A stretch of DNA of 23,189 nt, taken from a virus. The stretch is from positions 1-23,189 of the IMG/VR virus record IMGVR_UViG_3300046007_000316, one strand, 5' to 3'. Below the pieces are notes generated by a model, which made no database searches, had not been told where the DNA came from, and saw nothing but the letters and a program-made list of their open reading frames with translations. The stretch's first letter is position 1. Every line of letters starts with the position of its first letter. Position numbers and translations under genes: made by a program. This document shows, one piece after another, positions 5,760-23,189 of this stretch.

Positions 5760-6488
5760 ATGACAGCTCGTTATCCGCTAGTACGAGTTGGTGCTGATAT
5801 AAGTGAGCTTCCTGCGGGAGATACGCTTCTTGGTGTGGTATCTAGTGGTTCAGCAGAACAAATTCGCCAAGCCGTTAAAAACTCAACAGGTGCAATTTTA
5901 TTAAAAGGACAAGCAGTCTATATTAGTGGTGCATCTGGTGCAAATGTATTGGTTGCGTTATCCAGAGCCAATGCTGAGAGTACGTCTAGCAAAACATTAG
6001 GTTTAATAGAATCAAATATTGCTGTTGGGGCAAGTGGTTATGTTATTACTGAAGGCACATTGACTGGTTTAGACACTTCAATGGCACTCAATGAAGGCGA
6101 CCCTATATGGCTTAGTCCTACGACTGCTGGTGGTCTTTTATACGGATTAAATAACAAACCAGCCGCACCATATGATATGGTGTATTTGGGTGTTGTGACT
6201 AGAAAAAATGCAAATAACGGTTCTATATTTGTTAAAGTACAGAATGGATTTGAATTAAACGAATTACATAATGTCGCAATAAATGTTCCTACACACGGTG
6301 ATGTGTTACAATATGATTCCGTTACATCATTGTGGAAAAATGATACCATTGCAGGTGGTGCTGGAACAACTGTATTAGCCTTTGCTAATTTTGATATAAC
6401 CGATGGCGAACTTATTGTGGAACATTTATCAACTTTTAATCCATCAATTGTGGATGGTGAATTTATTGTGGAGTACACACCGTTATGA
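5760..6488 (+). CDS. Tail/head fibre protein, third copy of the beta module
   Basis: The 242-residue product has a conserved module (about 38-170) with GQAVYISGASG, SSKTLGLI, GTLTGLDTS, GDPIWLSP and KVQNGFEL, a pattern frequent in fibre proteins of phages from aquatic metagenomes. A linker with THGDVLQYDSVTSLWKND, a classic fibre-shaft segment, follows. The C-terminus contains two short repeats, ITDGELIVEH and IVDGEFIVEY. No ribosome site is visible at the ATG, four bases after the previous stop, suggesting re-initiation. The end overlaps the next gene by four bases (ATGA). Role: fibre, possibly receptor-binding. Confidence 0.74.
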   Translation: MTARYPLVRVGADISELPAGDTLLGVVSSGSAEQIRQAVKNSTGAILLKGQAVYISGASGANVLVALSRANAESTSSKTLGLIESNIAVGASGYVITEGTLTGLDTSMALNEGDPIWLSPTTAGGLLYGLNNKPAAPYDMVYLGVVTRKNANNGSIFVKVQNGFELNELHNVAINVPTHGDVLQYDSVTSLWKNDTIAGGAGTTVLAFANFDITDGELIVEHLSTFNPSIVDGEFIVEYTPL

Positions 6489-7432
6489 CAACAAGTAATT
6501 TAGGACGCATTGCTGTTGTATCACAAGGCGATTGGGTTGCAGGAACATATAAAGCACTGGATATCGTAAGATACAATGGTGCGGCATATATTGCTAAAGT
6601 AGGGACATCAACTGTACCAACAAACACTAGTTATTGGTCATTACTTGTGAATGATGGTACACCAAATTACACATGGGTTAAGTATGCCGATGATATAAAT
6701 GGCACAGGATTAAGTGATTCTCCAACAGGAAAAGTTGCTATTGGTATTGCAGTTAACAAAACTACTGCAACTGAATCCACTACCGCATCGGATTATGCTT
6801 GGTCACAAATAAAAGGTGATACGGGTTTAGCGGGTTCATCTTTATATACTTGGATTAAATATGCAGATGATGCAATTGGAACAGGTTTAAGCAATACATC
6901 AACTGGTAAATTATATATTGGTATTGCTGTAAATAAAACATCTGCCACAGAATCAACAACAGCAAGTGATTATGAATGGACAGCAATAAAAGGTGATACT
7001 GGCACAACTCTTTACACATGGATAAAGTATGCTGACGATGCAAATGGTACTAATCTAAGCAATGTACCAACTGGAAAATCATATTTAGGTATTGCTGTTA
7101 ATAAAACAACCGCAACAGAATCTACTAATGCGGGTGATTATGATTGGTCATTGATTAAAGGTGACACAGGTGCAACAGGTACAACGGGCAGTACAGGTGA
7201 AGCAGGCGCGTCTTTATATACATGGATAAAATATGGTGATGATGCCATAGGAACGGGATTATCCGATTCCCCTACAGGAAAAACCTATATCGGTATAGCA
7301 GTTAATAAAACTAGCGCAACTGAGTCAACTACTGCTAGTGACTATACTTGGAGTTTATTGGGTAGTAGTGGTGGCGGAAGTGGTGTATCAACAGGTAAAG
7401 CCATAGCTATGGCAATCGTATTCGGAGGTTAA
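6485..7432 (+). CDS. Repeat-containing fibre protein with carbohydrate-binding-like N-terminus
   Basis: The N-terminal part of this 315-residue protein (about 8-55, VSQGDWVAGTYKALDIVRYNGAAYIA, with SYWSLL further on) looks like a small chitin-binding-type module (CBM5/12-like): spaced aromatic residues and a GD/V-Y-NG-Y core. Four near-identical units of about 54 residues follow (starting near 61, 120, 176 and 244), each reading YTWIKYADD, GTGLS, PTGK, IGIAVNKT, ATEST and DYxWSxIKGDTG. Between units three and four is a collagen-like run of Gly-X-Y triplets (about 226-243). The C-terminus is Gly/Ser rich. Likely an elongated trimeric fibre or receptor-binding protein. Start overlaps the previous stop. 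Confidence 0.76.
   Translation: MTTSNLGRIAVVSQGDWVAGTYKALDIVRYNGAAYIAKVGTSTVPTNTSYWSLLVNDGTPNYTWVKYADDINGTGLSDSPTGKVAIGIAVNKTTATESTTASDYAWSQIKGDTGLAGSSLYTWIKYADDAIGTGLSNTSTGKLYIGIAVNKTSATESTTASDYEWTAIKGDTGTTLYTWIKYADDANGTNLSNVPTGKSYLGIAVNKTTATESTNAGDYDWSLIKGDTGATGTTGSTGEAGASLYTWIKYGDDAIGTGLSDSPTGKTYIGIAVNKTSATESTTASDYTWSLLGSSGGGSGVSTGKAIAMAIVFGG
6665..7360 (+). repeat. Four tandem in-frame repeats of about 54 codons
   Basis: Units begin near 6665, 6842, 7010 and 7214, each encoding the YTWIKYADD...IGIAVNKT...DYxW pattern. Protein identity between units is very high, but codons differ at many third positions, so the copies are not from a very recent duplication. They are being held alike at the protein level. 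Confidence 0.88.
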
Positions 7433-7839: not shown

Positions 7840-9129
7840 ATGTCTAAATATAAAGGAAATATAGTAAGTGCTACTCAGACATCTCTTTCTGGCACAAGTT
7901 ATACTGGACGAGCTAATGGTAAATTTACTTTGTCTGAGCAAATACAGGCTAGAGGAAGTTCTTTGTGGGCAAAAGGGTTAGGTGTTCCCGATGCCCCAAC
8001 TATCGGCACTGTTACTGAAGGTAATGCCCTAGTAATTGTATCTTTTACAGCACCTTCTGATACAGGTGGGCAAACTATTACTGGATATACTGCAACAAGT
8101 AATCCTAGTAACATAACTGGCACAGCAGCTTCAAGTCCGATTACAGTTACAGGATTGACTAACGGCACAGCTTACACATTTACAGTAGCAGCAACTAATG
8201 TATCTGGAACTGGTGCAAGTAGTTCTGCAAGCAATAGTGTTACGCCTAGTGCTACTTCAGTACCTGATGCGCCTACTATTACAAGTGTGTCTATTTCTGC
8301 TGATGCTATTGCAACTATTAACTTTACTGCGCCCTATAATGGTAATAGCCCAATTACAAGCTATACAGCCACAAGTTCGTATGGTGAAACTGGAACTGTT
8401 AGTCAAAGTGGTAGCGGTTCAGTTAATGTGACTATAGCAAGAACTAGAGCAACTACATTTACGCTAACAGCCACTAACGCTATAGGAACTAGCGTTCCAA
8501 GCAGTATTAGTTCTTCAGTTACAGCACCTCCAACTGTGGGCCAAGCCTATGGTGGGGGTTTCTTTGCAGGACAGTTAAACATATCAAACGCACGTTACTG
8601 GATAATTGTAGCACCTAAAGCTACTGGAAATGTTAGTAATACTACATGGGGCCCAAGTGGAGTAACAACTGGATTTACTTCAACAATTAATGGGCCAGCA
8701 AACTCAGCGGGACTGGCTGCATTAGGAGCTACTTATCCTGCTGCTACATTCTGTGAGAACTTGACTATTGGTGGTTATAGTGATTGGTATTTGCCAGCTA
8801 GAGATGAGCTTGAGGTTTGCTATTATTTCTTAAAACCGACAACAGATAATAATGATATTCGGGCTGGGAGTAATGCTTATGCTGTTGCACCAGAACCTAT
8901 TAGTACAAATCACACTCTTACTTCACCTGCTCAAACGATTGCAGGTATTGGGTTTAGAGATGGTGAAACTAATGCGTTTACAATTTCTCCAAACCATTAT
9001 TACCGCACATCTACAGAACTTAGTAGCACTGATGATATGATTTTAAGTTTTATCGGAGGATTTGTTAATCAATACGGTAAAACTTGGAACGGTGGTTCAG
9101 TCAGAGCTATTCGTAGAATTGCTGTCTAA
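7840..9129 (+). CDS. Adhesin: two FN3 domains plus C-terminal DUF1566 (Lcl-like) domain
   Basis: The 429-residue product has a conserved N-terminal attachment segment (about 1-47). Two fibronectin type III domains follow (about 50-137 and 141-230), both opening with VPDAPTI, with TGYTATSNP and YTFTVAATN in the first. After a Gly hinge (238-240) comes a DUF1566/Lcl-C type domain (about 250-429) with GGYSDWYLPARDEL (312-325), YRTSTE (388-393) and the end GGSVRAIRRIAV. The C-terminal domain has the C-type-lectin-like architecture used by phages and bacteria for ligand binding, so this is the best candidate in the window for a surface-binding protein. Arginine codons here are mostly AGA, unlike the CGT-rich coat gene. 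Confidence 0.8.
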   Translation: MSKYKGNIVSATQTSLSGTSYTGRANGKFTLSEQIQARGSSLWAKGLGVPDAPTIGTVTEGNALVIVSFTAPSDTGGQTITGYTATSNPSNITGTAASSPITVTGLTNGTAYTFTVAATNVSGTGASSSASNSVTPSATSVPDAPTITSVSISADAIATINFTAPYNGNSPITSYTATSSYGETGTVSQSGSGSVNVTIARTRATTFTLTATNAIGTSVPSSISSSVTAPPTVGQAYGGGFFAGQLNISNARYWIIVAPKATGNVSNTTWGPSGVTTGFTSTINGPANSAGLAALGATYPAATFCENLTIGGYSDWYLPARDELEVCYYFLKPTTDNNDIRAGSNAYAVAPEPISTNHTLTSPAQTIAGIGFRDGETNAFTISPNHYYRTSTELSSTDDMILSFIGGFVNQYGKTWNGGSVRAIRRIAV

Positions 9130-10836: not shown

Positions 10837-11192
10837 ATTGGGGTGAGTTAGTTCTTGAAGTTGATGACGTAATTACTGAAATGGGTCAACCCATTACAAT
10901 TACTTCTGTGACACAAGGGACATATGACCCTGCTTTAGGTAAATCAACTGACACTGTGAAAAATATTACTTCAATAGGTGTATTATTTGACTATGGTGAC
11001 CAAGATATTAATGGGACGACCATTATGCGTGGTGATAAAAAACTGCTTGTTAAGCCTTCAGGTTTAACTTCTGTGACCACTAACGATACTGTGACCATTG
11101 GTTCAACAAAATACCACATTGTATCTGTGACACAAACAAATCCAGCAGGAACAAATCTCCTTTATGAATTAGGGATTAGAGGGACAGCCTAA
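10833..11192 (+). CDS. Head closure / head-tail stopper protein
   Basis: The 119-residue, mostly beta product follows the adaptor with an ATGA overlap. It has the usual features of stopper proteins: IGVLFDYGDQDINGTTIMRGDKKLLVKP in the middle (about 48-75, a segment that forms the ring channel loop) and YHIVSV near the end. Its role would be to cap the filled head and join the tail. Its stop shares one base with the next start (TAATG), indicating coupled translation. Assignment is by gene order plus fold pattern, so the exact family is uncertain. Confidence 0.76.
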   Translation: MNWGELVLEVDDVITEMGQPITITSVTQGTYDPALGKSTDTVKNITSIGVLFDYGDQDINGTTIMRGDKKLLVKPSGLTSVTTNDTVTIGSTKYHIVSVTQTNPAGTNLLYELGIRGTA

Positions 11193-11659
11193 TGGCTGAT
11201 TACAGTGAGTCCATATTAATTAGTAACCTTACAAAACAAGTAGAAGTAAAAGCAAAAAAGGTTATTGATAGAACATTAGAAAAAGTTGTAAATGAGTTAA
11301 TGGAAACATCACCTGTAGGTGAACCCGATTTGTGGAAATGGAAACCAAAACCTGATTATGAAGCCGGTCACTATAAAGCAAATTGGCAACACACAATTGA
11401 TTCACCTGCTACAGAAGAAATAGAAGGTGAGGATATTGAAGGTACAGCGACTCGTGCTAGAATGTTAAACAACATTAAAAATAATAATAAATTACTCACA
11501 ACACACTATTTCACGAACAATACAAAGTACGCAAGTACAATCGAATATCAAAATTGGGCAATTCATAATGAAACCCCACGATTACAAGGGCTTGTTGCAT
11601 CAAATGCTATTAGAAAAGTCCCCACATTTTTAGCAGAATCAATTAGGGAGGTAGGATGA
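11192..11659 (+). CDS. HK97 gp10-like neck / tail completion protein
   Basis: The 155-residue product has the helix-rich start and central TSPVG...YKANWQ signature (about 38-66) that in the HK97 gp10 family reads TPVDTGxLRxNW. NNTKYASTIEYQNWA (about 107-121) follows, equivalent to the NxxxYAxxxEYG motif, and then a C-terminal helix. These are the diagnostic blocks of the family that joins head connector to tail. An insertion between P and the NW motif (about 42-58) is slightly longer than usual. Confidence 0.85.
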   Translation: MADYSESILISNLTKQVEVKAKKVIDRTLEKVVNELMETSPVGEPDLWKWKPKPDYEAGHYKANWQHTIDSPATEEIEGEDIEGTATRARMLNNIKNNNKLLTTHYFTNNTKYASTIEYQNWAIHNETPRLQGLVASNAIRKVPTFLAESIREVG

Positions 11660-12060
11660 GCCAAATCAAAATTAGAGCTGCATTAGAGACTGCCCTAGCC
11701 ACGATTACACCAAGTATCGATACTCAGTATGAGAATACTGCTTACACGCCTAAAACAGGTGTTCCTTATCAATCTGTGTCACTTGTTATCAATTCTACTA
11801 ACCCTACACTTGGCGATGCTTTCTATCGTGAGATTGGAATAATGTTGATTACACTTCATTATCCATTATTGGGCGGTACATTTGATGTGATGACTCAAGC
11901 AGAAAAGATTCGTGCTAAGTTTAAACGTGGTCAAACATTTACAAAAGATAATATCTCAGTTCTCTGTGATAAAACACCAGATATTCGGTCACTCCCTAAT
12001 GAGCCAGACCGTTTTGTTGTAGCAGTAAAAATATATTTTTATAGTAATATTATTTCTTAA
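11656..12060 (+). CDS. Tail terminator protein (DUF4128-like)
   Basis: The 134-residue product starts with IKIRAALETALATI, has PYQSVSLVINSTNPTLGDAFYREIGIMLITLHYP (about 36-69) and then AEKIRAKFKRGQTF (about 81-94). This is the pattern of DUF4128 tail terminators, which form a hexameric ring that stops tail tube growth. It overlaps the preceding gene by four bases and lies directly before the tail tube gene, the standard place. Confidence 0.82.
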   Translation: MSQIKIRAALETALATITPSIDTQYENTAYTPKTGVPYQSVSLVINSTNPTLGDAFYREIGIMLITLHYPLLGGTFDVMTQAEKIRAKFKRGQTFTKDNISVLCDKTPDIRSLPNEPDRFVVAVKIYFYSNIIS

Positions 12061-12075
12061 GAAAGGAGTTTCACA

Positions 12076-13890
12076 ATGGCAGTTTCTATTGCATCGGGTA
12101 TTTTTAAGACCCTAAGCTATGCTAAAGAATTCGAGCTTGGTAAAGTCCAAGATACAGCGGGTGAAGGCTTGACTTCTCCTGCAAGTATTGCAGTATCAAC
12201 TGGTATTGCACAAGGTGACAATTTAGCATTAGGTACAAACTTAACTGTAACGGGTTTATTGGCTATTGGTCAATTATTCCAAATTGGTTCTGATAAATAT
12301 AAAGTTTCAGCAGTTACCCAAAACACATCAGGTAACACTACAACCGCCACAATCGTCAGTTTAATCGCTGGTGATGCTAAAGCATTAAACAACTATTCTG
12401 CTGGTGTTAAAGTTACATTATTGGCTTCAACTGAAGAATTCCCAATCACAACTGCAAGTACTCCAGCTATTGGTCAAGCACCAACTGCGGCAACAACTGG
12501 CGCAACAGGTACTGGTACTGCGGGTCTTTCAACTTTAGCTATTGGTGGATTCACAGCGGGTATTATCCCTGTAGGTCAACGTCTATCTATTGGTGGTAAT
12601 GCGTATATCGTAACTGCATCTGTTGCAACTGGTGTGGTAACTACATCTGTAACAGTATTCCCTGTATTAGTAACAAGTCCTTCATCAGGCGCAATTACTT
12701 TTGTAACTTCAATTACAGGTAAATATTTAAGACGTGTTAGTTCTAACATGAACTTAAAATTACAAACATTCAAATCAAACGAAATTCGTACTGATATGCA
12801 ACGTGCTGACCTTGCGGTTGGTGGTCGTACTGTAGATGGTACAATTTCTGGTGAGTTATCTAACAAAACCTATGCTGATTTCATTGGTTCTACACTCCGT
12901 AGAGATTTCACAACAGGTGCAACAGCATCTTCTGTGGCAATTACAGCAGCAACTGCAACTAAAGATACTCCACGTTTAACATTAGTTACATCAACAGATA
13001 CCACCGCAACTTTAAAAGTTGGTGATGTTGTTTATACATCTGCTTGGGGTAATACTACATTAAACGCTTTCAATAACTATAACTTTATCGTTATTGAAAA
13101 CACTGCAACTAAAATTGTATTGGATTTATTGAAAGATAACTTCTCTGCGAACATTGCATTGACTGGTTTAGCAATTTCTCCAAGTTTTGTGGTTAAAGGT
13201 AAAAAAACCTATATCCCAAAATCAAATCACACTAAAGATTCATATGCGATTGAGCATTGGTATTCTGATATTGGTGAATCACAATTGTTCTTGGGTTGCC
13301 GTCCAACTCAATTAGCAATTAAATTGTCTCCATCTGCGATGTCAACTATTGATATCACTGTTATGGGTACTGCATCTAAATCAGCTCAGATTCAACAATT
13401 GGCAAACCCAACTGCTTCTGGTACTGATACAACAATTAGTGCTACTACTGGTGCGCTTTATATCAAAAATAAAAAAGGTACATCTGCTGTACTTGAAAAA
13501 GTTGGCTTGTTGACTTCATTTGATATCACAGTAAATGGTAACGGTTCTAATGCATCGGTTATTGGTTCAGACCAAACACCTGATATCTTCTTGGGTTCAC
13601 TTGACGTAACAGGTAACAGTTCTATTTACTTCTTAGATGGTAAATACCGTGATGCCTTCTTAAACCAAGATGAAGTATCTATTATTGCTGTATTCCGTGC
13701 TGATGGTGATGCAAATGGCCAATTCATTTCATTAGTATTACCTAAAGTAAAATTCAGTGACGCGAGTGTTAACGATGGTGAATCTGGTTTGTTATTAACA
13801 ATGCCATTCACTGCGACTTTGTACTCTGTGGCAATTGGTTCTACAAACTTTGAAGAAACCACTGTTCAGATTCAAGACTCTGCGCTTTAA
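12076..13890 (+). CDS. Tail tube protein with large N-terminal insertion
   Basis: Main tail tube subunit, 604 residues, far longer than the roughly 300-400 usual for this family. The start (1-30, GIFKTLSYAKEFELGKVQDTAG) and the block from about 215 (GKYLRRVSSNMNLKLQTFKSNEIRTD, then VDGTISGELSNKTYADFIGSTLRRDF) are canonical for phage tail tube proteins of the Phage_tube_2 type. Between them lie about 180 extra residues forming two similar small beta modules (about 47-117 and 147-212), each with xxIGQxFxIGxxxYxVxxV and a Thr-rich strand. They probably project from the tube surface. A strong AAAGGAG (12062-12068) seven bases before the ATG suits a high-copy protein, and a terminator follows the gene. 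Confidence 0.85.
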   Translation: MAVSIASGIFKTLSYAKEFELGKVQDTAGEGLTSPASIAVSTGIAQGDNLALGTNLTVTGLLAIGQLFQIGSDKYKVSAVTQNTSGNTTTATIVSLIAGDAKALNNYSAGVKVTLLASTEEFPITTASTPAIGQAPTAATTGATGTGTAGLSTLAIGGFTAGIIPVGQRLSIGGNAYIVTASVATGVVTTSVTVFPVLVTSPSSGAITFVTSITGKYLRRVSSNMNLKLQTFKSNEIRTDMQRADLAVGGRTVDGTISGELSNKTYADFIGSTLRRDFTTGATASSVAITAATATKDTPRLTLVTSTDTTATLKVGDVVYTSAWGNTTLNAFNNYNFIVIENTATKIVLDLLKDNFSANIALTGLAISPSFVVKGKKTYIPKSNHTKDSYAIEHWYSDIGESQLFLGCRPTQLAIKLSPSAMSTIDITVMGTASKSAQIQQLANPTASGTDTTISATTGALYIKNKKGTSAVLEKVGLLTSFDITVNGNGSNASVIGSDQTPDIFLGSLDVTGNSSIYFLDGKYRDAFLNQDEVSIIAVFRADGDANGQFISLVLPKVKFSDASVNDGESGLLLTMPFTATLYSVAIGSTNFEETTVQIQDSAL

Positions 13891-13921
13891 AAAATAACTT
13901 TCTCCCGAAGTTAGACTGATT

Positions 13922-13948
13922 GACCCTCGAAAGAGGGTCTTTCTTTTT
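13922..13948 (+). terminator. Rho-independent terminator after the tail tube gene
   Basis: GACCCTC (13922-13928), GAAA tetraloop, GAGGGTC (13933-13939), then TTTCTTTTT. A textbook terminator, separating the connector/tube operon from the chaperone gene that has its own promoter. Confidence 0.88.
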
Positions 13949-13960
13949 GTAGTAAATCAC

Positions 13961-13990
13961 TTGACTTTAGTTAGGGTGACGTGGTAAGAT
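13961..13990 (+). promoter_or_regulatory. Promoter of the first tail assembly chaperone gene
   Basis: TTGACT (13961-13966), 18-base spacer ending TGG, TAAGAT (13985-13990); the TGN before the -10 hexamer gives an extended -10. It lies right after the terminator, so the first chaperone is transcribed on its own. Confidence 0.58.
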
Positions 13991-14040
13991 TATTATGTTG
14001 CATAAGCAATTTTACTAACCAAAATTGAAGGACTTTCCAT

Positions 14041-14436
14041 ATGGCAATCTCATTAAAATCGCTCAATGTTGAAGCGGCTTGTGATACCCCTTACGACTTA
14101 GATATTGTTGATGAACAAACAGGTAAATCAACAGGTATTACATTAAAAGTTATTGGCGCACATAGCCAAGTGATTACCAAACTTGTTGCAAAAGCTGTTA
14201 ATGCTAAACGCCAAGCAGAATCACAAATGACAAAAAAAGGCAAAGATGTACCAGTAACTAAAGTTGAAGACGACTTAGAGTTTGGTATTGAGTTAGCTGC
14301 AAAACGTATTGTAGGCTGGTCTGGTATTGAAGAAACATTCACACCAGAACTCGCTTTTGAATTGTGCAAAACAAATCCTGTGATTCGTGACCAAGTAGTC
14401 ACTGCTTCAGAAGATATGTCGCACTATACAAAATAG
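14041..14436 (+). CDS. Tail assembly chaperone, G-type (short form)
   Basis: Coats the tape measure protein and recruits tube subunits during tail assembly. The 131-residue product has the blocks CDTPYDLDIVDEQTGKSTG (14-32), LEFGIELAAKRIVGWSGIEETFTPE (about 79-103) and NPVIRDQV (about 111-118). The same blocks are present in the next gene, so they are paralogues. The placement between tube and tape measure genes is diagnostic. GAAGGA (14027-14032) lies eight bases before the ATG. I find no slippery heptamer near the end, and neither shifted frame can enter the T region: the -1 frame stops within the terminator. The gene is bracketed by its own promoter and terminator. Confidence 0.82.
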   Translation: MAISLKSLNVEAACDTPYDLDIVDEQTGKSTGITLKVIGAHSQVITKLVAKAVNAKRQAESQMTKKGKDVPVTKVEDDLEFGIELAAKRIVGWSGIEETFTPELAFELCKTNPVIRDQVVTASEDMSHYTK

Positions 14437-14460
14437 TTTTCTTATAATAAGAAAAACACT

Positions 14461-14500
14461 AAACCCTATTGAGGAACATCTTCAATAGGGTTTTCTTTTA
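14461..14500 (+). terminator. Strong terminator between the two chaperone genes
   Basis: AAACCCTATTGA (14461-14472) pairs perfectly with TCAATAGGGTTT (14482-14493), followed by TCTTTTA. The 12-bp stem and U-rich tail should stop most transcription from the first chaperone gene before the second. On the minus strand the preceding A-run gives only a weak U-tail. Confidence 0.85.
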
Positions 14501-14510
14501 TCTGCTGACA

Positions 14511-14539
14511 TTGACAAATCTGATAAACTGTGAAATAAT
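14511..14539 (+). promoter_or_regulatory. Promoter of the second chaperone and tape measure genes
   Basis: TTGACA (14511-14516), 17-base spacer, AATAAT (14534-14539), identical in both hexamers and spacing to the promoter at 2038-2066. The start should fall near 14546, leaving an untranslated leader of only about 20 bases. That leader has no recognisable Shine-Dalgarno sequence before the ATG at 14567, which predicts low translation. Confidence 0.62.
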
Positions 14540-14566
14540 AATGAGACATATACCATACCTAACCAT

Positions 14567-15307
14567 ATGAATATTTTACCTATTTGTGAAACACCTTATG
14601 AATTTGAAGTCATCTCTGACATTACGGGTCAAGGGATGGGAGTTTATATAAGTGTCATATCACAATATGCTAAACGAGTAAATTTCAACACAAAAGGCAC
14701 GTTATTATTTAAACAACGTGTGGCTCAAATAAAAGAATTATCCCCTTCTTCTGATTCATTTTTTAGTGTGGAAGAAGAACGTGATTTTGAAATTCAATCA
14801 TCTGTCCTTAGAACTGTTGGTTGGCGTGGAGTTGAAGAAGAATTTACTTACGAGAATATTCTTGATGTGTGTTCAACTAATCAATCTATACGAAAGCAAA
14901 TAACTCAAGCATCAAATGGTGTGGGGTTATTTTTAGATTCATTAGTTGAACAATTAGTTGAATATACTAAAAACGAATTAAAACTATCCGAGAAACAAAA
15001 GGATGGTGCAACCTATAGGGAACATCTTAAGGCTGTCGAGGAAATGACAGGGATTACCCCACAAGAACTTACTACTGTGGAGGTTAGCCACATTATTATG
15101 TACTTGTGGGAGTGGTTCTTAGATTTAAATAGCACACGTCAAAGTGGTATGGGCATGAATGCTATCTCCTACAGCGAAATCAAAGCATGGTGTGAATTAG
15201 TTGGTGTCTCACTATCACCTTATGAAATACGAGTAATTAAATTACTTGACCGAGTATACTTAGAGCATTACAACAGTAAACAAGATAAAGAAACATCTAC
15301 TAAATAG
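14567..15307 (+). CDS. Tail assembly chaperone, GT-type, encoded as a separate full gene
   Basis: The 246-residue product has two parts. Residues about 5-110 repeat the G domain of the preceding gene: CETPYEFEVISDITGQGMG, DFEIQSSVLRTVGWRGVEEEFTYE and NQSIRKQI align block by block. Residues about 125-240 are a T domain with YREHLKAVEEMTG, then SYSEIKAWCELVGVSLSPYE and IKLLDRVYLEH, the ending typical of T-type tail chaperones. In most long-tailed phages this protein is made from the G gene by frameshift; here it has its own promoter and start. No upstream in-frame start exists before a stop at 14531-14533. The weak ribosome site would keep it less abundant than the short form, as the frameshift ratio does elsewhere. 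The tape measure gene follows 11 bases later. Confidence 0.83.
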   Translation: MNILPICETPYEFEVISDITGQGMGVYISVISQYAKRVNFNTKGTLLFKQRVAQIKELSPSSDSFFSVEEERDFEIQSSVLRTVGWRGVEEEFTYENILDVCSTNQSIRKQITQASNGVGLFLDSLVEQLVEYTKNELKLSEKQKDGATYREHLKAVEEMTGITPQELTTVEVSHIIMYLWEWFLDLNSTRQSGMGMNAISYSEIKAWCELVGVSLSPYEIRVIKLLDRVYLEHYNSKQDKETSTK

Positions 15308-15318
15308 AGGAATAAATC

Positions 15319-18300
15319 ATGGCAACAGCACCAGCAAATGACGGAACAGTTAGTTTTTCGATTGGAGTAAAAGATGATTCCAGCGCAAGTATTGACAAAA
15401 TTGCTACAAAGGTATCTAGCTTAAATAGATTGATTAACTCTATTAATAACGTAAAAATGACTGTTGAAGTTGGTCAAGCAACAATGGATTCATTTAAGCG
15501 GATTGAAGAAAGCATTCAAAGTATGTCAAATAGCTTTAAAGACTTAGGTAAAGGCTATGGTACAGCTATGGCTGAAGGGGCTAAGATGGCTCGTATTGAA
15601 ATGGATATTCAAGGTAAATTACAAGTTGAACAATTAAAACAAAAAACACTTGAAATGCGCATTATTCATAAAACTTCATCAGATGCAATTGTGGCTGATG
15701 CAATTCAAGCGGCTGATAAGATTAATGAAGCAAATAAAAAAGTTAAAGCACCCTCATTTGATTTGGATGTGAGCAAAGCAATTATTGATTTAAAGAATTC
15801 GTTTGCTTTGCAAAAACAAGCATTAGATTCTGGCAATAAAGAATTATATGCGGCACAAAGTGAAGCTGTTGAAAAGTTATTAAATTTGATTCCAGAATCA
15901 AATAAGAAATCAATTTTACTATATCGTCAGACAGCCGCTTTAAAATTAGTTGAATCTAAACGTGCAATGCAATTAGAGATTGAAGCAGAAGCCGAAAAGA
16001 ATAAAAAGATTGTTGCTGCTGTGGATGAAGGCAAAAAGATAATTGCGGCTAAAGATGCTGAAGCGGCAAGAAATAGAGAATCGGCAATTAAAAAAGAAAA
16101 CGATGCTGAAGTAAAAGCATACAATTCCCTTGTGAAAAGTATTGAAGAAGCATATGCAAAACGTAATGCAATTGCATTGCAAGCATTTGCTAATGAAATG
16201 GAATTAGGAAAAAAACGAATTGCAGAAGCAAAACGTGTAGAAGCAGAAATAGCAAAAACAGCAGAAGAAACACAAAAGAAAACATGGGCACAAGCAGGTA
16301 TGATGCTTGGTAGCTCTAAAAGTACCGCGCCAACACCCACATCATTTAGCGGAATGCCCGCTGGTCTAAGTCAAAATCAAAAAGTTGATGCAACAGGAAT
16401 GTTACTTGGTAACATTAAAGCATCAACAGTAACTCCTTCTGCAAATCAAGCATTACCATCAGGATTCAGTCTTCTTTCAGACTTACAAAAAAAGGCAATC
16501 GATGATGCTAATAAATCATACACAACTTATAATGAAACAGTAAAGAAAATATTCACTGAATATAATCGGCTTGTTTTAGATGCACAACAAAGAACTAATG
16601 AACAAAGAGTTGCCAATGCAACCAGAACAGAACAAGAAATAATTAGAATAACAAATCAATCTGTTCAAGAACAAACAAATTTAATGCGTAGATTGAGTGA
16701 ACAAAATCCACGCACAAATATGATTGCAGGTATGTCGTTAGCAGGAAGACAAGCCGCTAATCAACAACCTGTACCTCAAATAAATACAACTGGGACAACT
16801 AATGCACTCACAGCGTTAACAGGTGCATTAAATCAAGTACAAAAAGCATTTTTAGCTATTGGCATTGTCATGTCCGCTCGTACTGTCATGAATTATGCTG
16901 ATGACTGGGTTCATTTCACAAATGCTGTGGCAATGTCAACTGAAAAAACAGGTCATGCTGTTGAAATGCAACAACGCTTGTTTAAATTAGCACAAGACAA
17001 TAGAACACCATTAGATGCTGTAACATCTGTATATTTAAGAATGTCTCGTGCCGCTGAAACTTTAAATATTTCACAAGCAGAAACAGTCAAGATGATTGAT
17101 GTGGTTACTAAATCACTTGCTATCATGGGTACTGCACCAACGGCTGTTCGTGGTGGTCTATTGCAATTAGAACAAGCTCTTGGCGGTGTAACCGTTCGTG
17201 GGCAAGAATTTAAATCTATTTTAGATTCACAACCATTATTGATGCAAGTAATTGCTAATCATTATAAAGAAGCGGCAAGAGATTTAAAAGTACAACAATT
17301 AGAATTACAAGGTGCAAGTAAAGCACAAATTGATGCGGCTAAATCAGCCGATATCAATGGTATGTCAATTAGAGAATTATCTAATTTGATGCGTGACCAA
17401 AAAATGACTGCTGAGGCAACAAGTAAAGCCATTGTTCTTGGTCAAACTGAGATTAACGAAAAATATAAATTATCTCAAAAAACATTTGAGCAAGCCTTTA
17501 CTGTATTTAATAATGGTCTAACTAAATATGTTGGAACATTAAATGCCGCTACAGGCACTAGTAATATGTTCTTTAATGCAATGAAAGGTTTATCTGAAAA
17601 CATAGACCTTATGGTTGCAGGTATGATTGGTCTTGGTGCGGCAATGCTCACCTTTGCCTTAAATACTGAAAGAGCCGCAGCAGCAGGAGCTTTGATGGCT
17701 CGTACACCTGCTGGATTTGCAATTGGTGCATTAGCGATGGGTGCAACATATTCCATATCAAAATCACAAAGTGAAGCAGCCGCTAAATCTGAAGAAGAAA
17801 AAATAATTAGTAGAATTAAAAATATTAATGACACAATTACAAAATACTCAGAACAAAATCCTATTGGCAAAAAGGCAATGGAATCTTTGGGTGGATATAA
17901 TAAAACAACTTTAGAAAGTGAAAAGGATGCATTAGAAAAACAATTAAAAACTCTTCGTGAAGCTAAATCTGAAGCAGAAACATTAGAAACAGAAGCAAAA
18001 CGTAGAGGTATTTCACAGCAGACGTTGGAGTATGAAAAATTAAGTACTGCTGCAAGTGATGCATTTTCTAAAATAACTGCTAAAACAGATAAGTATGATG
18101 AAGCCAATGAGAAAGCAATTAAATCATTAGAGCTTTATAGAAAAGGATTAGAAAGCATCGCATCTTCTAAAGCTCTTACTACTGAGATGAAAGCTAAATT
18201 ACCTGCAACAGGTACTGAAGAATATTTCAGTAAAATTGAAGAGATGCTTGGCTCAGATAAAGTTAAAAAATATAAAGAAGAAGCAGAACAAGCAGCGTCT

Positions 18301-21300
18301 AAAATAATACAAGGTGCGCTTGATAAAAAGAATGCTGAAGCGGCTAAAACAGCATTAGAAGATGCGCAAGTCAAATTAGAACAGTTTGATGTTCAAATCA
18401 AAGACTTACAAAGTAAAATATCAACACAATTACAATCAGCGTTCATTAAAAACCCAATTAAAATTGCGTTTGAAATGGATGAAACTAAATTTGAAAAACC
18501 TGCGGCACAATTCAAATCATTAATTGAAAAATCAGCTAAATCATCAGGTGTGCCAGCTAATCTAATCGCATCTGTGATTCAAACCGAATCTCATTGGAAT
18601 CCAAAAGCTGTTTCAGAAACAGGTGTTCAAGGATTGGCTCAATTTACTAAACCAACAGGAAAATACTACGGTATTACCGATAGAACAAATGTAGAACAAA
18701 ACATTGATGCTGCTGGAAAATATCTTGCTGATTTAATAAAACGCTTTGGTGGAAATTTAGAAAAAGCAGTCACTGCATATAATGGTGGTGGTGATAAACA
18801 ATATGCTTCAAAAGTATTAGGTTTGTATGGTAAGCAATCAACCTCTGAATCACCAGAGATGATTTCTACTCAACAACAATTGAATACTGTAATGGCGGCT
18901 AGAGATAAATTGGCTGATGCTATTAAAAATAAAAATGGAACACTTGTTATTCAGGCTAAAGAGCAATTAGAACTTGAATTAAGAAAAACAAGTGAGTTAG
19001 ATAAAGAATATGCGCGTCAGCAACAATTAAATCAAGAAAAAATTGCTAATAATAAAAAGGCAATTGAATTAATTGATAAACAAACTGAAGCGGAATATAA
19101 ATATGCTAAGGCATATGATTCTGTGATTGAAAGACAATCAGTTTCAGCAAAAGCAACTGAATTAGCCACATCAAAAGGCGCATTCGCTATTCCTGAAATT
19201 GAATCAATGCTTAAAAAGATAACAAATGACCAAATTGCATTGTCTAAAGAAAAAGCAATGGCACTTGATACATTAGATAAAGCTATAGCTCAAGCAGCAT
19301 CTGAAAGAAACGATGTGACAATGGCGGCTGAAAAACAAGCTAAATTGAGTGTATTAGAGTTAGACGATAAACAATTAGCTCTTGAAAAAGAAATAAATGA
19401 TGTTGCAAGAGAACGTAAAGCATTACTTGAAGCACAAGTCAAAGTTATCCCTGATTTAATTAAAGGTAATTCTGATTTACTTGAAAAGCTAACATCAACC
19501 ACGGGAGAACTTGAAAAGCAAAAAGCAATTCGTGCAGCGGGGGCAACAGGTCAAGAAGCACAACGTATTCGTGATTTGATTGATGAAAAAGAATTATTAT
19601 TAGGTTTAAATACTATTAAAGATACTGTGACAAGTAGTATTTCTAGTGGCTTTAGCCAAATGTTCCAAGATATCATTCTTAATGGTAAATCAGCCGCTGA
19701 TGCACTTGCGGCTACATTTAAAAGCATGTTATCTAAAATCATGTCAGCAATCATGGATTTTATGGCACAGCAACTTGTGCAAAAAATGTTTGGTTTGTTT
19801 AGTGGTTCAAGTTTAGGTGGTGGTTTATTTGGTGGTATTGGTGGAACTGTGACTGCTATTGCAGGTGCTGTGGCTATCGGAACATACATGGGTATGCAAA
19901 AAACAGTTAGTGAAAATACTAATCAATTATCCATGACTTCTAAATATCCAAATGGAATTCCAGAAAATGCATTGGCTATGCAAAGTATGGATAAAGCCGT
20001 TAGCTCAATGAATTTTTTAATCACGAGTCAAGAAGCATCTCGTTATAATAAAGATTTACGCGAGTCTATTGGTAAAGTATATGGTGTTGTTTATACTCAG
20101 TCAGATAAAATAGGTTCATTTGTTAAAGGGGCATTAGAAGAATATTTCCCTGAGACAATGGCGGCTATAAGAGGTGCGTTTGTTTCAGTAAAAGATTTTA
20201 TTTCACCATTAACTAATTCAATAAGCAATGGTTTTACATCAATAACTAAATATTTTGGAATGGGTGCGCAAGCCGCATCAGCGTCAACTACAACATTAGC
20301 ATACGGCACATCAACATTAGCCGCTGATGCAGCATCTCAAGCGGCAGCACATACAGCATTGGGTAAATTATCAACAGCAATCGATAAAGCAATAACCCCA
20401 ACATTCCAAAGCACAGCAGTAGGGGTTCAAAAATTAGGTGAAACAGCAACTAAATCATCAGGTTCATTATTAGCTACAATTGGTTTTGTGGCATCACTTG
20501 GTATTGAAGCATTCAGTCTTGCATCTTCATGGAATCAATTAAATGGGGCATTTGCTAAAACATTAGCTGTTGTTGATGCAATTGGCAATGTTGCATTCTC
20601 TTATGCTATTGCGTTTGGTTTGAATCCCATTGCATTAGCTATTGCTTCTGTGGCAACAGCAATTAGTATTGTTGGTAATGTGATTAAAGATGGTTTTACA
20701 CCAATGAATATTTCAAGAATGGTTGGTGCAGCAGCTGGTGCAATAATTGGAACAATGATATTGCCAGGAATTGGAACACTGATAGGTTTTATCCTTGGTG
20801 ATATGTTTGGTAAATTAATTGGTAGTTTGTTTGAAAAACAAAAGAAAATTGATTTTGGTATTCTAGTTAATAAAAAACAAGATTACGGCAATATTGAATC
20901 ACCAACTGTTGATAAAGTAAGCAAAGAGAACAGAGTGTTGGCAATGTCAACAAATATGGGTGATGTTTACTATGGTAGAACACAAGGATTAGATTATGCA
21001 ATAACAAAACAAGAAAAAGAATTTGTTTTAGGTGTGGCTAATACATTACAGTCAATTGGTAATGTAGTTGGTAATGTTGATAAAGCAATTGGTAACACAG
21101 AAGATTATACTCGAAATATATTTAGAAATATTGTAAATGTAATGAGACGAGTTGAAGCCAGTAGTTTTGATGCAACAAAATCAACTAGTTGGTTATTTAC
21201 ATCTGTTGTGAAAAATTTACAAAAAACAAATACTGATGCAGGAAAAGAAATTGGTGGTTGGTTGTCAGTATTTATTAATGCCTTTCCAAAAGAATACTCC

Positions 21301-23189
21301 GCCACAATAATTGATGCTTTGACTCAAAATAAAGAGTTATACAATAGTAAAACAAAAGCGATGGAAACATCCTCTGTTCTTGAAAAATTAGTATTAGAAG
21401 CTCCTATTGGTGTGCTTGGCTTTGTTCAAAGCAGATTAGAATCTATGGTTAAAAAAGGAAAAACAGTACAGCAAGTGACTGATGAGACTTTCCAAATAAT
21501 TAGTGATTCTTCTGCTGGATTAAGTGTTGTCAATGAAGAATTTATTAAATTTGGTATTGTTCTTGATGCTACTGCAACAAAATTAAATGCTACAGCAAAT
21601 GCAACATCTAGTTTCTCATCAAGCATTACTGGTCGAGCTGATGTTACAAATACGGCTAATTTAGTTGAAAGTATTATTAAAAAATATGATTTAAATGCTG
21701 TTATTTCAATGCAATTTGTTAGTAAATTAGGTGATGTTATCCACAGTGCATTTATGGCTAGTGGGACTGAAGCGGCAAATGTGCAAAAACAAATTGAAGC
21801 TGGAAAGATTGATGTTAGCAAAATACCGTCATCGTTGACAAAATATCCAACAATGGATGAGTTGAAAAAATATGGTACAACTGATATTTCAGGTAACATA
21901 TATCAATATACAATGGATTCAGCAATTGCATCATTATCAAAAGCAATGACAGGTATTGCAGCTAAAGGATGGAAAACAATCGAAGGGAAAGGATTTCAAT
22001 TAGCAACACCTGCGGCAGAATCAGCATATAATCCTGTACAATCAAATGCTAAGATTTTAGCTGATTATTTTTCTAAAAACCCATCATTGACTGAAGCACA
22101 GTTAAATACGATTGCTAATACCAATTTTATTACAAGCAATTATAAAGATAAAGCATCAATTGACGCTAATCTTAAAATTAAAACAGGCGCATTACCAACT
22201 GAACTTGGTTATTTTGGAAAAGATTGGATGCAATTATCGCCAAAAGATAAATCTTATATGGCTAATGCTACCGATATGGCAACTGTTGTTAAACTATTTG
22301 TTGATGAATATAAACGTGAAAACTCATTAATAAATGGCATGTGGACTCACACCAACGCAGTGGCTAATGAACAAACAAAAATGATGACAAAAGCAATTGA
22401 TTCATTAGATGTATTTATTACATCAAATAAATTAACTGGAAAGTCAGATATTATTGGTACATTAGGTTTAGCTACTTCATCAATAATGAAAACAGGTATT
22501 GATTATGGTGTTGCTGCTACATGGGATTTAACTAAAGCAGCAACAGTAGTTACATCTGTGGCAAATAAAAATTCATTAGAAGCTAAAAAAGCATTAGATG
22601 ATGCTAAAAATGCATTGGTTGTTGCAAATCAAGGTAAAGATAAGGCGTCAATAAAATCAGCACAAGCCACATTAAATAAAGAGCAAATGAACTATGATGC
22701 CAATTATGTTATTGAACTTCAAAAAGCAACACAAGAAATTCAAAATAATATGGGTCTTATTTTTGAAATGTTTGTTAATGCTGGCTCAAAGTTAAGCGAT
22801 GTTGTTTCTGATGATTTTTCACAAAAAGCACAGGATTTTGTAACTGCTTTAGGTGGAATAGATAAAGCTGTTTCTGCGGTAGATAAAGCTAAAAAATATG
22901 CATTGACTGATGAAGAATATGCAAAAATGAAAGTTGATGTGGCTCAAACACGAGTTGATGCATTATTAAAACAAACAAGTTTTAAAACAATTGAAGAAGC
23001 AACTACTGCATTTAAAAATAATCCACTGGATGCAACTCTCGTAACATTAATGGGTAGTGCTTCAGATTTGAGTGATGCATTAAAGAATGCAAGTACTACA
23101 GCAAATGGATTTAAAAAATCTATATCTGATTGGGTATTAGGTAAAATGACAACAACTGTGGGTTCACCTGAATCACAATTCAATGCATC
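15319..23189 (+). CDS. Giant tape measure protein with lytic transglycosylase domain, 3' end cut by window edge
   Basis: Sets tail length and is probably released into the host envelope at infection. AGAGGA (15306-15311) lies seven bases before the ATG; the frame is open to the window edge, at least 2,623 residues. Order: charged coiled coil (about 1-330); tape-measure N-terminal domain (about 500-640, TPLDAVTSVYLRMSRAAETL, GQEFKSILDSQP); hydrophobic stretch (764-813); coiled coil (815-1050); Slt-type transglycosylase domain (about 1065-1175) with catalytic Glu1090 in QTESHWNP, GLAQF (1105-1109) and AYNGGG (1153-1158); coiled coil (1190-1420); the usual tape-measure end block with glycine-rich hydrophobic tail (1435-1525). 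An extension of about 1,100 residues follows, with further hydrophobic segments (1715-1734, 1755-1789, 1801-1838). The last visible residues (SISDWVLG, GSPESQFNA) look mid-domain, so the protein continues. Confidence 0.95.
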   Translation, partial: MATAPANDGTVSFSIGVKDDSSASIDKIATKVSSLNRLINSINNVKMTVEVGQATMDSFKRIEESIQSMSNSFKDLGKGYGTAMAEGAKMARIEMDIQGKLQVEQLKQKTLEMRIIHKTSSDAIVADAIQAADKINEANKKVKAPSFDLDVSKAIIDLKNSFALQKQALDSGNKELYAAQSEAVEKLLNLIPESNKKSILLYRQTAALKLVESKRAMQLEIEAEAEKNKKIVAAVDEGKKIIAAKDAEAARNRESAIKKENDAEVKAYNSLVKSIEEAYAKRNAIALQAFANEMELGKKRIAEAKRVEAEIAKTAEETQKKTWAQAGMMLGSSKSTAPTPTSFSGMPAGLSQNQKVDATGMLLGNIKASTVTPSANQALPSGFSLLSDLQKKAIDDANKSYTTYNETVKKIFTEYNRLVLDAQQRTNEQRVANATRTEQEIIRITNQSVQEQTNLMRRLSEQNPRTNMIAGMSLAGRQAANQQPVPQINTTGTTNALTALTGALNQVQKAFLAIGIVMSARTVMNYADDWVHFTNAVAMSTEKTGHAVEMQQRLFKLAQDNRTPLDAVTSVYLRMSRAAETLNISQAETVKMIDVVTKSLAIMGTAPTAVRGGLLQLEQALGGVTVRGQEFKSILDSQPLLMQVIANHYKEAARDLKVQQLELQGASKAQIDAAKSADINGMSIRELSNLMRDQKMTAEATSKAIVLGQTEINEKYKLSQKTFEQAFTVFNNGLTKYVGTLNAATGTSNMFFNAMKGLSENIDLMVAGMIGLGAAMLTFALNTERAAAAGALMARTPAGFAIGALAMGATYSISKSQSEAAAKSEEEKIISRIKNINDTITKYSEQNPIGKKAMESLGGYNKTTLESEKDALEKQLKTLREAKSEAETLETEAKRRGISQQTLEYEKLSTAASDAFSKITAKTDKYDEANEKAIKSLELYRKGLESIASSKALTTEMKAKLPATGTEEYFSKIEEMLGSDKVKKYKEEAEQAASKIIQGALDKKNAEAAKTALEDAQVKLEQFDVQIKDLQSKISTQLQSAFIKNPIKIAFEMDETKFEKPAAQFKSLIEKSAKSSGVPANLIASVIQTESHWNPKAVSETGVQGLAQFTKPTGKYYGITDRTNVEQNIDAAGKYLADLIKRFGGNLEKAVTAYNGGGDKQYASKVLGLYGKQSTSESPEMISTQQQLNTVMAARDKLADAIKNKNGTLVIQAKEQLELELRKTSELDKEYARQQQLNQEKIANNKKAIELIDKQTEAEYKYAKAYDSVIERQSVSAKATELATSKGAFAIPEIESMLKKITNDQIALSKEKAMALDTLDKAIAQAASERNDVTMAAEKQAKLSVLELDDKQLALEKEINDVARERKALLEAQVKVIPDLIKGNSDLLEKLTSTTGELEKQKAIRAAGATGQEAQRIRDLIDEKELLLGLNTIKDTVTSSISSGFSQMFQDIILNGKSAADALAATFKSMLSKIMSAIMDFMAQQLVQKMFGLFSGSSLGGGLFGGIGGTVTAIAGAVAIGTYMGMQKTVSENTNQLSMTSKYPNGIPENALAMQSMDKAVSSMNFLITSQEASRYNKDLRESIGKVYGVVYTQSDKIGSFVKGALEEYFPETMAAIRGAFVSVKDFISPLTNSISNGFTSITKYFGMGAQAASASTTTLAYGTSTLAADAASQAAAHTALGKLSTAIDKAITPTFQSTAVGVQKLGETATKSSGSLLATIGFVASLGIEAFSLASSWNQLNGAFAKTLAVVDAIGNVAFSYAIAFGLNPIALAIASVATAISIVGNVIKDGFTPMNISRMVGAAAGAIIGTMILPGIGTLIGFILGDMFGKLIGSLFEKQKKIDFGILVNKKQDYGNIESPTVDKVSKENRVLAMSTNMGDVYYGRTQGLDYAITKQEKEFVLGVANTLQSIGNVVGNVDKAIGNTEDYTRNIFRNIVNVMRRVEASSFDATKSTSWLFTSVVKNLQKTNTDAGKEIGGWLSVFINAFPKEYSATIIDALTQNKELYNSKTKAMETSSVLEKLVLEAPIGVLGFVQSRLESMVKKGKTVQQVTDETFQIISDSSAGLSVVNEEFIKFGIVLDATATKLNATANATSSFSSSITGRADVTNTANLVESIIKKYDLNAVISMQFVSKLGDVIHSAFMASGTEAANVQKQIEAGKIDVSKIPSSLTKYPTMDELKKYGTTDISGNIYQYTMDSAIASLSKAMTGIAAKGWKTIEGKGFQLATPAAESAYNPVQSNAKILADYFSKNPSLTEAQLNTIANTNFITSNYKDKASIDANLKIKTGALPTELGYFGKDWMQLSPKDKSYMANATDMATVVKLFVDEYKRENSLINGMWTHTNAVANEQTKMMTKAIDSLDVFITSNKLTGKSDIIGTLGLATSSIMKTGIDYGVAATWDLTKAATVVTSVANKNSLEAKKALDDAKNALVVANQGKDKASIKSAQATLNKEQMNYDANYVIELQKATQEIQNNMGLIFEMFVNAGSKLSDVVSDDFSQKAQDFVTALGGIDKAVSAVDKAKKYALTDEEYAKMKVDVAQTRVDALLKQTSFKTIEEATTAFKNNPLDATLVTLMGSASDLSDALKNASTTANGFKKSISDWVLGKMTTTVGSPESQFNA

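What the first reader, a model, noticed from the sequence alone, without database searches (positions are those of the whole stretch)
14041..15307. Tail assembly chaperones G and GT made by gene duplication, not by frameshift
Two successive genes share the same N-terminal domain block by block (C[D/E]TPY, [L/F]EI...RxVGWxGxEExFT, NxxIRxQ). Only the second carries the C-terminal T domain (SYSEIKAWCELVG, LSPYE). In most long-tailed phages the long form is produced by a programmed ribosomal frameshift at the end of G, a highly conserved trick. Here the first gene has no slippery heptamer I can see, and its shifted frames cannot reach the T region. The phage seems to have replaced recoding with a duplicated G domain.
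Basis: partly seen in the sequence, partly recalled or inferred. Interest (0 to 1): 0.75.

Follow-up and report, generated by a model that had tools for sequence, protein, structure and literature searches.

The report
Two-gene tail chaperones without ribosomal frameshift
A group of uncultured long-tailed bacterial viruses appears to make the short and long forms of its tail-building helper protein from two separate genes, where relatives seem to make both from one gene by a programmed ribosome slip; a similar solution is already reported for some T4-like phages, so this looks like a second case with its own control signals.

Summary
g1 (14041-14436, 131 aa) and g2 (14567-15307, 246 aa) share an N-terminal G domain (30% identity over 117 aa, E 1e-19); only g2 carries the T domain (Phage_TAC_18). 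No shifted frame of g1 reaches T. Five further lineages of related uncultured phages keep the pair; in three, 1.1-2.2 kb with KilA-N/AntA antirepressor-like genes lies between. In all six, a terminator-like hairpin follows g1, GT has its own sigma-70-like promoter site, the slippery heptamer seen in relatives is broken in g1, and the frames are fused in g2. Outside the group T lies in a shifted frame behind one upstream ORF in 14 of 14 named phages fetched and 27 of 28 other loci. So recoding was most likely replaced by two hard-wired genes. Trees do not decide whether the second G arose by duplication in place or came from a related phage. No protein or RNA data exist here. Precedent: some T4-like phages carry a short and a fused long chaperone gene (PMC10885494), in an unrelated family. 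New variant of a known kind; moderate interest.

The parts
13922..13939 (+). intrinsic terminator-like hairpin after the tail tube gene, upstream of g1
13961..13990 (+). promoter-like site of g1: TTGACT, 18 nt, TAAGAT (9 of 12)
   Evidence: a TTGACT/TTGACA promoter-like site lies upstream of g1 in 6 of 6 lineages
14041..14436 (+). g1: short tail assembly chaperone (G only, 131 aa)
   Evidence: phrog_313 tail assembly chaperone E 1.3e-11; AlphaFold model pLDDT 80.7; of 275 PDB chains aligned, the best two entries are 2ob9 (HK97 tail assembly chaperone, Z 4.8) and 3klu (YqbN, Z 4.3), modest scores
14461..14493 (+). intrinsic terminator-like hairpin between g1 and g2
   Evidence: 15-pair stem then TCTTTT; RNA fold z -6.2; a hairpin with a T-rich tail follows g1 in 6 of 6 lineages, arms differ yet pair
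14511..14539 (+). promoter-like site of g2: TTGACA, 17 nt with TG before the -10, AATAAT (11 of 12)
   Evidence: same layout 56-64 nt before the GT start in 6 of 6 lineages
14567..15307 (+). g2: long tail assembly chaperone, G domain fused in frame to T domain (246 aa)
   Evidence: Phage_TAC_18 E 2.2e-22; phrog_4966 E 1.6e-21, phrog_3817 tail chaperonin E 7e-12
15319..23189 (+). tape measure protein gene, starts 11 nt after g2, runs off the window
   Evidence: TMP_3 E 1.7e-32, SLT transglycosylase E 2.5e-24; phrog_3336 tape measure E 1.8e-43; start read
12076..13890 (+). tail tube protein gene upstream of the pair (context)
   Evidence: Phage_tube_2 E 3.1e-19

Best explanation
g1 and g2 are the short (G) and long (GT) tail assembly chaperones of a long-tailed phage. 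In the ancestor both probably came from one gene by a -1 programmed frameshift. In this lineage the two products are now two genes: g1 keeps the G frame with the slippery site destroyed and T gone; g2 is the former frameshift product with the frames fused at the old slip position. g1 lies between its own promoter-like site and a terminator-like hairpin; g2 has its own promoter-like site and lies just upstream of the tape measure gene. The excess of G over GT, which frameshift efficiency sets in other phages, would therefore be set by promoter strength, termination and translation initiation: a Shine-Dalgarno site precedes g1 in all six lineages but g2 in only one. Shown by sequence: homology, fused frames, closed frames, conserved signals, shifted-frame layout in relatives. 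Inferred: ancestral state, direction of change, ratio control, protein function.
For: Homology of the two G domains. T domain only in g2. Gene order tube, G, GT, tape measure. Two-gene state in six lineages A-F; both genes complete in 17 IMG/VR contigs besides the window (A 6, B 5, C 1, D 3, E 1, F 1), some of them near-identical. In C, D and E the genes are 2196, 1101 and 1204 nt apart with KilA-N or AntA genes between. T in a shifted frame behind one upstream ORF in 14 of 14 named phages fetched (11 have an in-frame heptamer in the overlap, 2 are +1, 1 is -1 without a canonical heptamer), in 27 of 28 loci outside the group (16 distinct T sequences), and in L131. The slip position A AAT TTT/TTC of L131/L003 reads G CAC TAT, G CAC TAC, A AAT TAT, T AAC TTC, T AAC TTC, T AAT TTC in g1 of A, B, C, D, E, F. 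Intergenic DNA 117-118 of 130 identical between A and three B loci, where synonymous differences in g1 and the parts of g2 are 26-57%. dN/dS 0.03-0.04 for g1 against 0.16-0.19 for g2; mean identity over A-F: g1 66%, T 58%, G domain of g2 41%. Shine-Dalgarno pairing energy of g1 -5.3 to -6.4 in 6 of 6; of g2 0.1 to 1.5 in 5 of 6; g2 is the weakest of the 23 window genes scored.
Against: Lineage C has a good Shine-Dalgarno site before GT (-5.9), so weak initiation is not a fixed part of the ratio control; in D an upstream TTG start would score -2.2. g1 in C ends with T TTA AAA AAA TAG, which contains slippery strings, although that -1 frame stops 32 nt later. GT of C carries T TTT TTA at the junction, which could in principle yield a short product by frameshift. 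Promoters and terminators are consensus or folding matches, not transcripts; the promoter scan found 13 sites where shuffles gave 20, and the pattern used on the other lineages was written after seeing the window and also hits elsewhere in the long gaps of C-E. The structural match of g1 is modest and the AlphaFold model of g2 is under pLDDT 50 over residues 1-19 and 21-103. L005, L073 and L075 have shifted T frames without a canonical heptamer.
Confidence: 0.85

Rival explanations
1. The second G did not arise by duplication in place. The phage imported a G gene (g1) or a fused GT gene from a related phage, and the original frameshift locus was lost.
For: In the G trees g1, the G domain of g2 and the G genes of Synechococcus and Caulobacter phages form one group (bootstrap 91-97), and the best trees put either g1 or g2 with those phages, never strongly. 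Putting the T domains with those phages costs 8-10 log units, not significantly (p-AU 0.146, 0.075), which hints at mixing of G and T modules.
Against: g1 and g2N as one clade is equally compatible (p-AU 0.18-0.69). In the 31-row tree g1 and g2N both show the pairs A-B, C-E and D-F (C-E only 88/69 in g2N; the T tree leaves C and E unresolved), so the two genes were probably inherited together.
Confidence: 0.45
2. A cryptic recoding event still makes some GT from g1, or a short G from g2, and the second gene only tops up one form.
For: Slippery strings at the end of g1 and at the GT junction in lineage C only; A7 run in the middle of g1 of the window.
Against: The -1 and +1 frames after g1 are stopped before T in all six lineages; in C-E T is more than 1 kb away; the A7 run is not kept in three B loci; no in-frame heptamer at the GT junction in A, B, D, E, F.
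Confidence: 0.05
3. The G domain of g2 has lost chaperone function and g2 acts mainly as a T protein; its fast divergence is decay.
For: Mean identity 41% for the G domain of g2 against 66% for g1 over A-F.
Against: dN/dS of that domain is 0.15-0.19 between A and three B loci; its length is roughly kept and residues such as E8, P10, F13, R82, V84 and W86 are invariant in six lineages.
Confidence: 0.1

Closest known systems
T4 gp26 / gp51 pair (phrog_150)
   Same: A short chaperone gene and a longer related gene; the PRFect paper PMC10885494, citing Vladimirov 2022, says some T4-like phages carry a short and a fused long gene instead of a frameshift (passage). Here gp26 and gp51 match the same PHROG and each other at E 2e-6 in a single comparison. 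That these two T4 genes are the pair meant is my recall.
   Different: No detectable relation of gp51 to g2 (hhalign probability 0.1%); the T4 genes are on opposite strands; here same strand, with terminator and promoter sites between, in phages with a phrog_313 / TAC_18 chaperone.
Lambda gpG / gpGT
   Same: Short and long chaperones that share an N-terminal domain; [quoted passage not shown]
   Different: Lambda makes GT by -1 frameshift (same passage); here two genes. Lambda sequences were not compared.
Pasteurella phage Pm86, Mannheimia phage 1152AP2, Synechococcus phage Yong-M4-211 and similar
   Same: Homologous G and T domains.
   Different: One G gene, T in the -1 frame with GGGAAAC, GGGAAAG, AAATTTC.

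Membership tests
Tail assembly chaperones of long-tailed phages (G/GT type) | Located between tail tube and tape measure genes | tested here: met
Tail assembly chaperones of long-tailed phages (G/GT type) | Profile match to a chaperone family | tested here: met
   g1 phrog_313 1.3e-11; g2 Phage_TAC_18 2.2e-22; g1 has no Pfam match
Tail assembly chaperones of long-tailed phages (G/GT type) | Short and long form share the N-terminal domain | tested here: met
Tail assembly chaperones of long-tailed phages (G/GT type) | Chaperone fold (HK97 gp13, YqbN) | tested here: inconclusive
   g1: top two entries by VIA-align are 2ob9 (Z 4.8) and 3klu (Z 4.3); Foldseek E not significant. g2 model poor
Tail assembly chaperones of long-tailed phages (G/GT type) | Binds tape measure and tube proteins, absent from virions | not testable with these tools
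   needs experiments
Frameshift-made G/GT | T frame open from the end of G in the -1 or +1 frame, usually with a slippery heptamer | tested here: not met
T4-type two-gene chaperones (phrog_150) | Short gene plus fused long gene, no frameshift | tested here: met
   layout shared
T4-type two-gene chaperones (phrog_150) | Sequence homology to gp26/gp51 | tested here: not met
   g1/g2 show no phrog_150 match at E up to 1; hhalign of the g2 alignment with gp51 probability 0.1%; gp26 was not compared with g1 directly

The most novel reading that the evidence does not exclude
A whole phage lineage has moved control of the G:GT ratio from ribosomal frameshifting to gene regulation: G is a stand-alone transcription unit with a good ribosome site, GT is transcribed from its own promoter together with the tape measure gene and usually started without a Shine-Dalgarno site. 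Once uncoupled, the two G domains specialised, the G gene staying well conserved while the G domain of GT drifts, and the gap became a landing place for antirepressor genes.
Probability: 0.45. Interest if true: 0.6.

Novelty: new variant of a known kind. Interest (0 to 1): 0.5.

Why it matters
The G/GT frameshift is a highly conserved recoding event of long-tailed phages. A group of phages that has lost it while keeping both products would show that the protein ratio, not the frameshift, is what is needed, and gives natural pairs in which the two isoforms can be removed, swapped or titrated separately. It also warns annotators not to force a frameshift join where two chaperone genes are present.

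Tried and rejected
An alignment of seven diverse T domains gave no usable patterns; a closer set worked. Tree tests to decide duplication against import stayed open with 24, 26, 19, 31 and 23 rows; grouping g1 and g2N with the Pasteurellaceae-type G genes was rejected (p-AU 0.0015). The second AlphaFold job, on g2, gave mean pLDDT 57.8 and no useful PDB match. The MAFFT alignment of the six terminators misplaces lineage F, so I used single folds and made no formal covariation count. A search of PDB sequences with g1 found nothing at E up to 1. The A7 run in g1 was set aside as it is not kept in lineage B. Two more capsid relatives, G008 and G009, were fetched but not put through the frame classification and are in no count. 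L083 was left out of the G trees because my script did not extract its G; its G, and those of the more distant phages L084, L086-L088, are named by position and T overlap, not by a similarity test with g1.

Literature: ten searches of the held open-access library showed, in the titles and abstract starts listed (30 of 91 papers), no report of this state in siphophages; most subscription papers are not held, including Vladimirov 2022. Passages were read of eight papers: PMC10885494 and PMC5009743 are used; PMC12846349 led me to Vladimirov 2022; PMC12859696 (Gordonia cluster DJ phages, a candidate chaperone gene without slippery sequence, status open) is a possible parallel that I did not follow; PMC11131426, PMC9603447, PMC5679792 and PMC11751726 gave nothing used.

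Full report
Check of the observation. BLASTP aligns g1 with residues 1-116 of g2 at 30% identity, E 1e-19; the local alignment score is 168 against at most 53 in 1000 shuffles. Only g2 matches Phage_TAC_18 (E 2.2e-22, residues 157-233); g1 has no Pfam match but matches phrog_313, tail assembly chaperone (E 1.3e-11). The tube protein gene lies upstream (Phage_tube_2) and the tape measure gene starts at 15319, 11 nt after g2. The AlphaFold model of g1 (pLDDT 80.7) has HK97 tail assembly chaperone (2ob9, Z 4.8) and YqbN (3klu, Z 4.3) as its best PDB entries, of 275 chains aligned; both scores are modest, and Foldseek alone was not significant. That YqbN is a chaperone of this kind is recalled.

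No route by frameshift. The -1 frame of g1 stops at 14445 and 14448; the +1 frame, which is the frame of g2, is stopped at 14486 and 14531. The single in-frame slippery string of g1 is an A7 run at 14232, far from the end, and it is not kept in three lineage B loci.

What lies between. The 130 nt between the genes hold a 15-pair hairpin followed by TCTTTT (14461-14493) and a promoter-like site TTGACA-17-AATAAT with TG before the -10 (14511-14539), 11 of 12 consensus bases; the hairpin region folds at z -6.2. g1 has its own promoter-like site and a terminator-like hairpin upstream. The promoter scan of 11000-16500 found fewer sites than shuffles (13 against a mean of 20), the terminator scan more (7 against 2.7), so the promoter sites rest on conservation, not on the scan.

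The state in relatives. Scans of IMG/VR with g2, g1, the capsid protein and alignments gave six lineages that carry g1 and an in-frame GT: A (window), B (L015), C (L144), D (L127), E (L145), F (L143). Both genes are complete in 17 contigs besides the window, some near-identical; of the 15 loci of the first scan 11 show both, and the other four are cut by contig ends. g1 of the other lineages is 58-97% identical to that of A or B; g2 is 44-83% identical to that of A. The gap is 130 nt in A and B, 140 in F, and 2196, 1101 and 1204 nt in C, D, E, where it holds KilA-N (C, E) or AntA (D) antirepressor-like genes. In all six a hairpin with a T-rich tail follows g1, with arms that differ yet pair, and a TTGAC[AT]-17-[AC]ATAAT site with TG before the -10 lies 56-64 nt before the GT start. 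I wrote that promoter pattern after seeing the window, and such sites also occur elsewhere in the long gaps of C-E. In C, D and E a further terminator-like hairpin precedes this promoter.

Outside the group, T lies in a different frame behind a single upstream ORF in 14 of 14 named phages that I fetched (116 records match g2 and 5 match g1): 11 with an in-frame X XXY YYZ string in the overlap, two shifted by +1, one (Roseobacter CRP-6) at -1 without a canonical string. In the more distant ones the upstream ORF is called G by position. The same holds for 27 of 28 further loci with 16 distinct T sequences: L072 is cut before its G gene, L055 has a G frame that is broken upstream, L073 and L075 show no canonical heptamer, L077 and L078 are +1. 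L131, whose T is 39% identical to that of g2, is -1 with AAATTTT.

How it was hard-wired. In L131 and L003 the slip site is A AAT TTT/TTC, in the codons for A-N-F. At that place g1 reads G CAC TAT (A), G CAC TAC (B), A AAT TAT (C), T AAC TTC (D, E) and T AAT TTC (F): the heptamer is broken in different ways while N and F are kept in D, E and F. g2 of A can be set without a gap against the frameshift product of L131 across the junction (...ANF|YEGLTSCLVEW... against ...GLF LDSLVEQLVEY..., read by eye), that is, it looks like the former frameshift product with its frames fused.

Rates and signals. Between A and three B loci, g1 has dN/dS 0.03-0.04, the G domain of g2 0.15-0.19 and T 0.16-0.18. 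Over A-F mean identity is 66% for g1, 58% for T, 41% for the G domain of g2. The gap is 117-118 of 130 identical while synonymous differences in g1 and the parts of g2 are 26-57%, so the intergenic signals appear constrained. The Shine-Dalgarno energy is -5.3 to -6.4 for g1 in all six and 0.1 to 1.5 for the ATG start of g2 in five; C is the exception at -5.9, and an upstream TTG in D would score -2.2. In the window g2 is the weakest of 23 starts scored. Since g2 and the tape measure gene are adjacent, GT is probably transcribed with the tape measure gene, while G is a unit of its own (inference).

Origin. In the 31-row G tree, g1 of A-F form one group (91/96), the G domains of g2 another (98/97), and both group with the Synechococcus and Caulobacter phage G genes (94/97), which have T in a shifted frame. 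The order of the three is open: holding g1 and g2N together costs 0.5 log units (p-AU 0.285), 1.25 in a reduced set (p-AU 0.214). So duplication in place and import from a related phage cannot be told apart. g1 and g2N show the same pairs A-B, C-E and D-F, weakly for C-E in g2N (88/69), while the T tree leaves C and E unresolved; this fits joint inheritance. Because shifted-frame phages lie inside and around this group, a frameshift ancestor is the most likely (inference).

Precedent. The PRFect paper (PMC10885494; passages read) says that some T4-like phages carry one short chaperone gene and one longer fused gene instead of frameshifting, citing Vladimirov et al. 2022, which is not held. T4 gp26 and gp51 match the same PHROG and each other (E 2e-6); gp51 shows no relation to g2 by profile comparison. 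So the kind is known; this is very likely an independent case in another chaperone family, with identifiable control signals and several states of gene spacing. In lambda a 30:1 ratio of G to GT is crucial (PMC5009743, passage); how the ratio is set here is inference.

Noticed in passing
L144 6400-8595, L127 4903-6003, L145 6403-7606: KilA-N (L144, L145) or AntA (L127) antirepressor-like genes sit between the two chaperone genes, with promoter-like and terminator-like signals around them; the L127 and L145 proteins look alike in their C-terminal halves (by eye).
   Followed up: partly
L002 2874-2890, L089 2317-2336, L077 and L078 2983-2996: Limnohabitans phage DC31, Curvibacter phage P26059A and two uncultured phages have T in the +1 frame with a shared ACTTTCG motif at the end of G, a likely +1 chaperone frameshift.
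   Followed up: partly
window 6485-7432: Protein with about four copies of a repeat around YTWIKYADD...IGIAVNKT.ATEST (by eye), among adhesin/fibre-like genes that lie between capsid and connector genes.
   Followed up: partly
window 7840-9129: Fibronectin type III domain plus a Lcl C-terminal match below its cut-off, between capsid and connector genes.
   Followed up: partly
window 12076-13890: Tail tube protein of 604 aa; the phage matches listed (12 of 99 records) begin only at residue 211 or later, so the first 200 residues are an extra part.
   Followed up: no
window 15319-23189: Tape measure protein of at least 2623 aa with an SLT transglycosylase domain, which suggests a very long tail.
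   Followed up: no
L144 6376-6399 and GT junction: Lineage C alone has T TTT TTA at the GT junction and T TTA AAA AAA at the end of g1, possible remnants or new slip sites.
   Followed up: partly
L055 about 2594-3013: A close relative of the Pasteurella-type loci has a G frame that is open only from 2672, so its G gene seems interrupted, with T intact.
   Followed up: no
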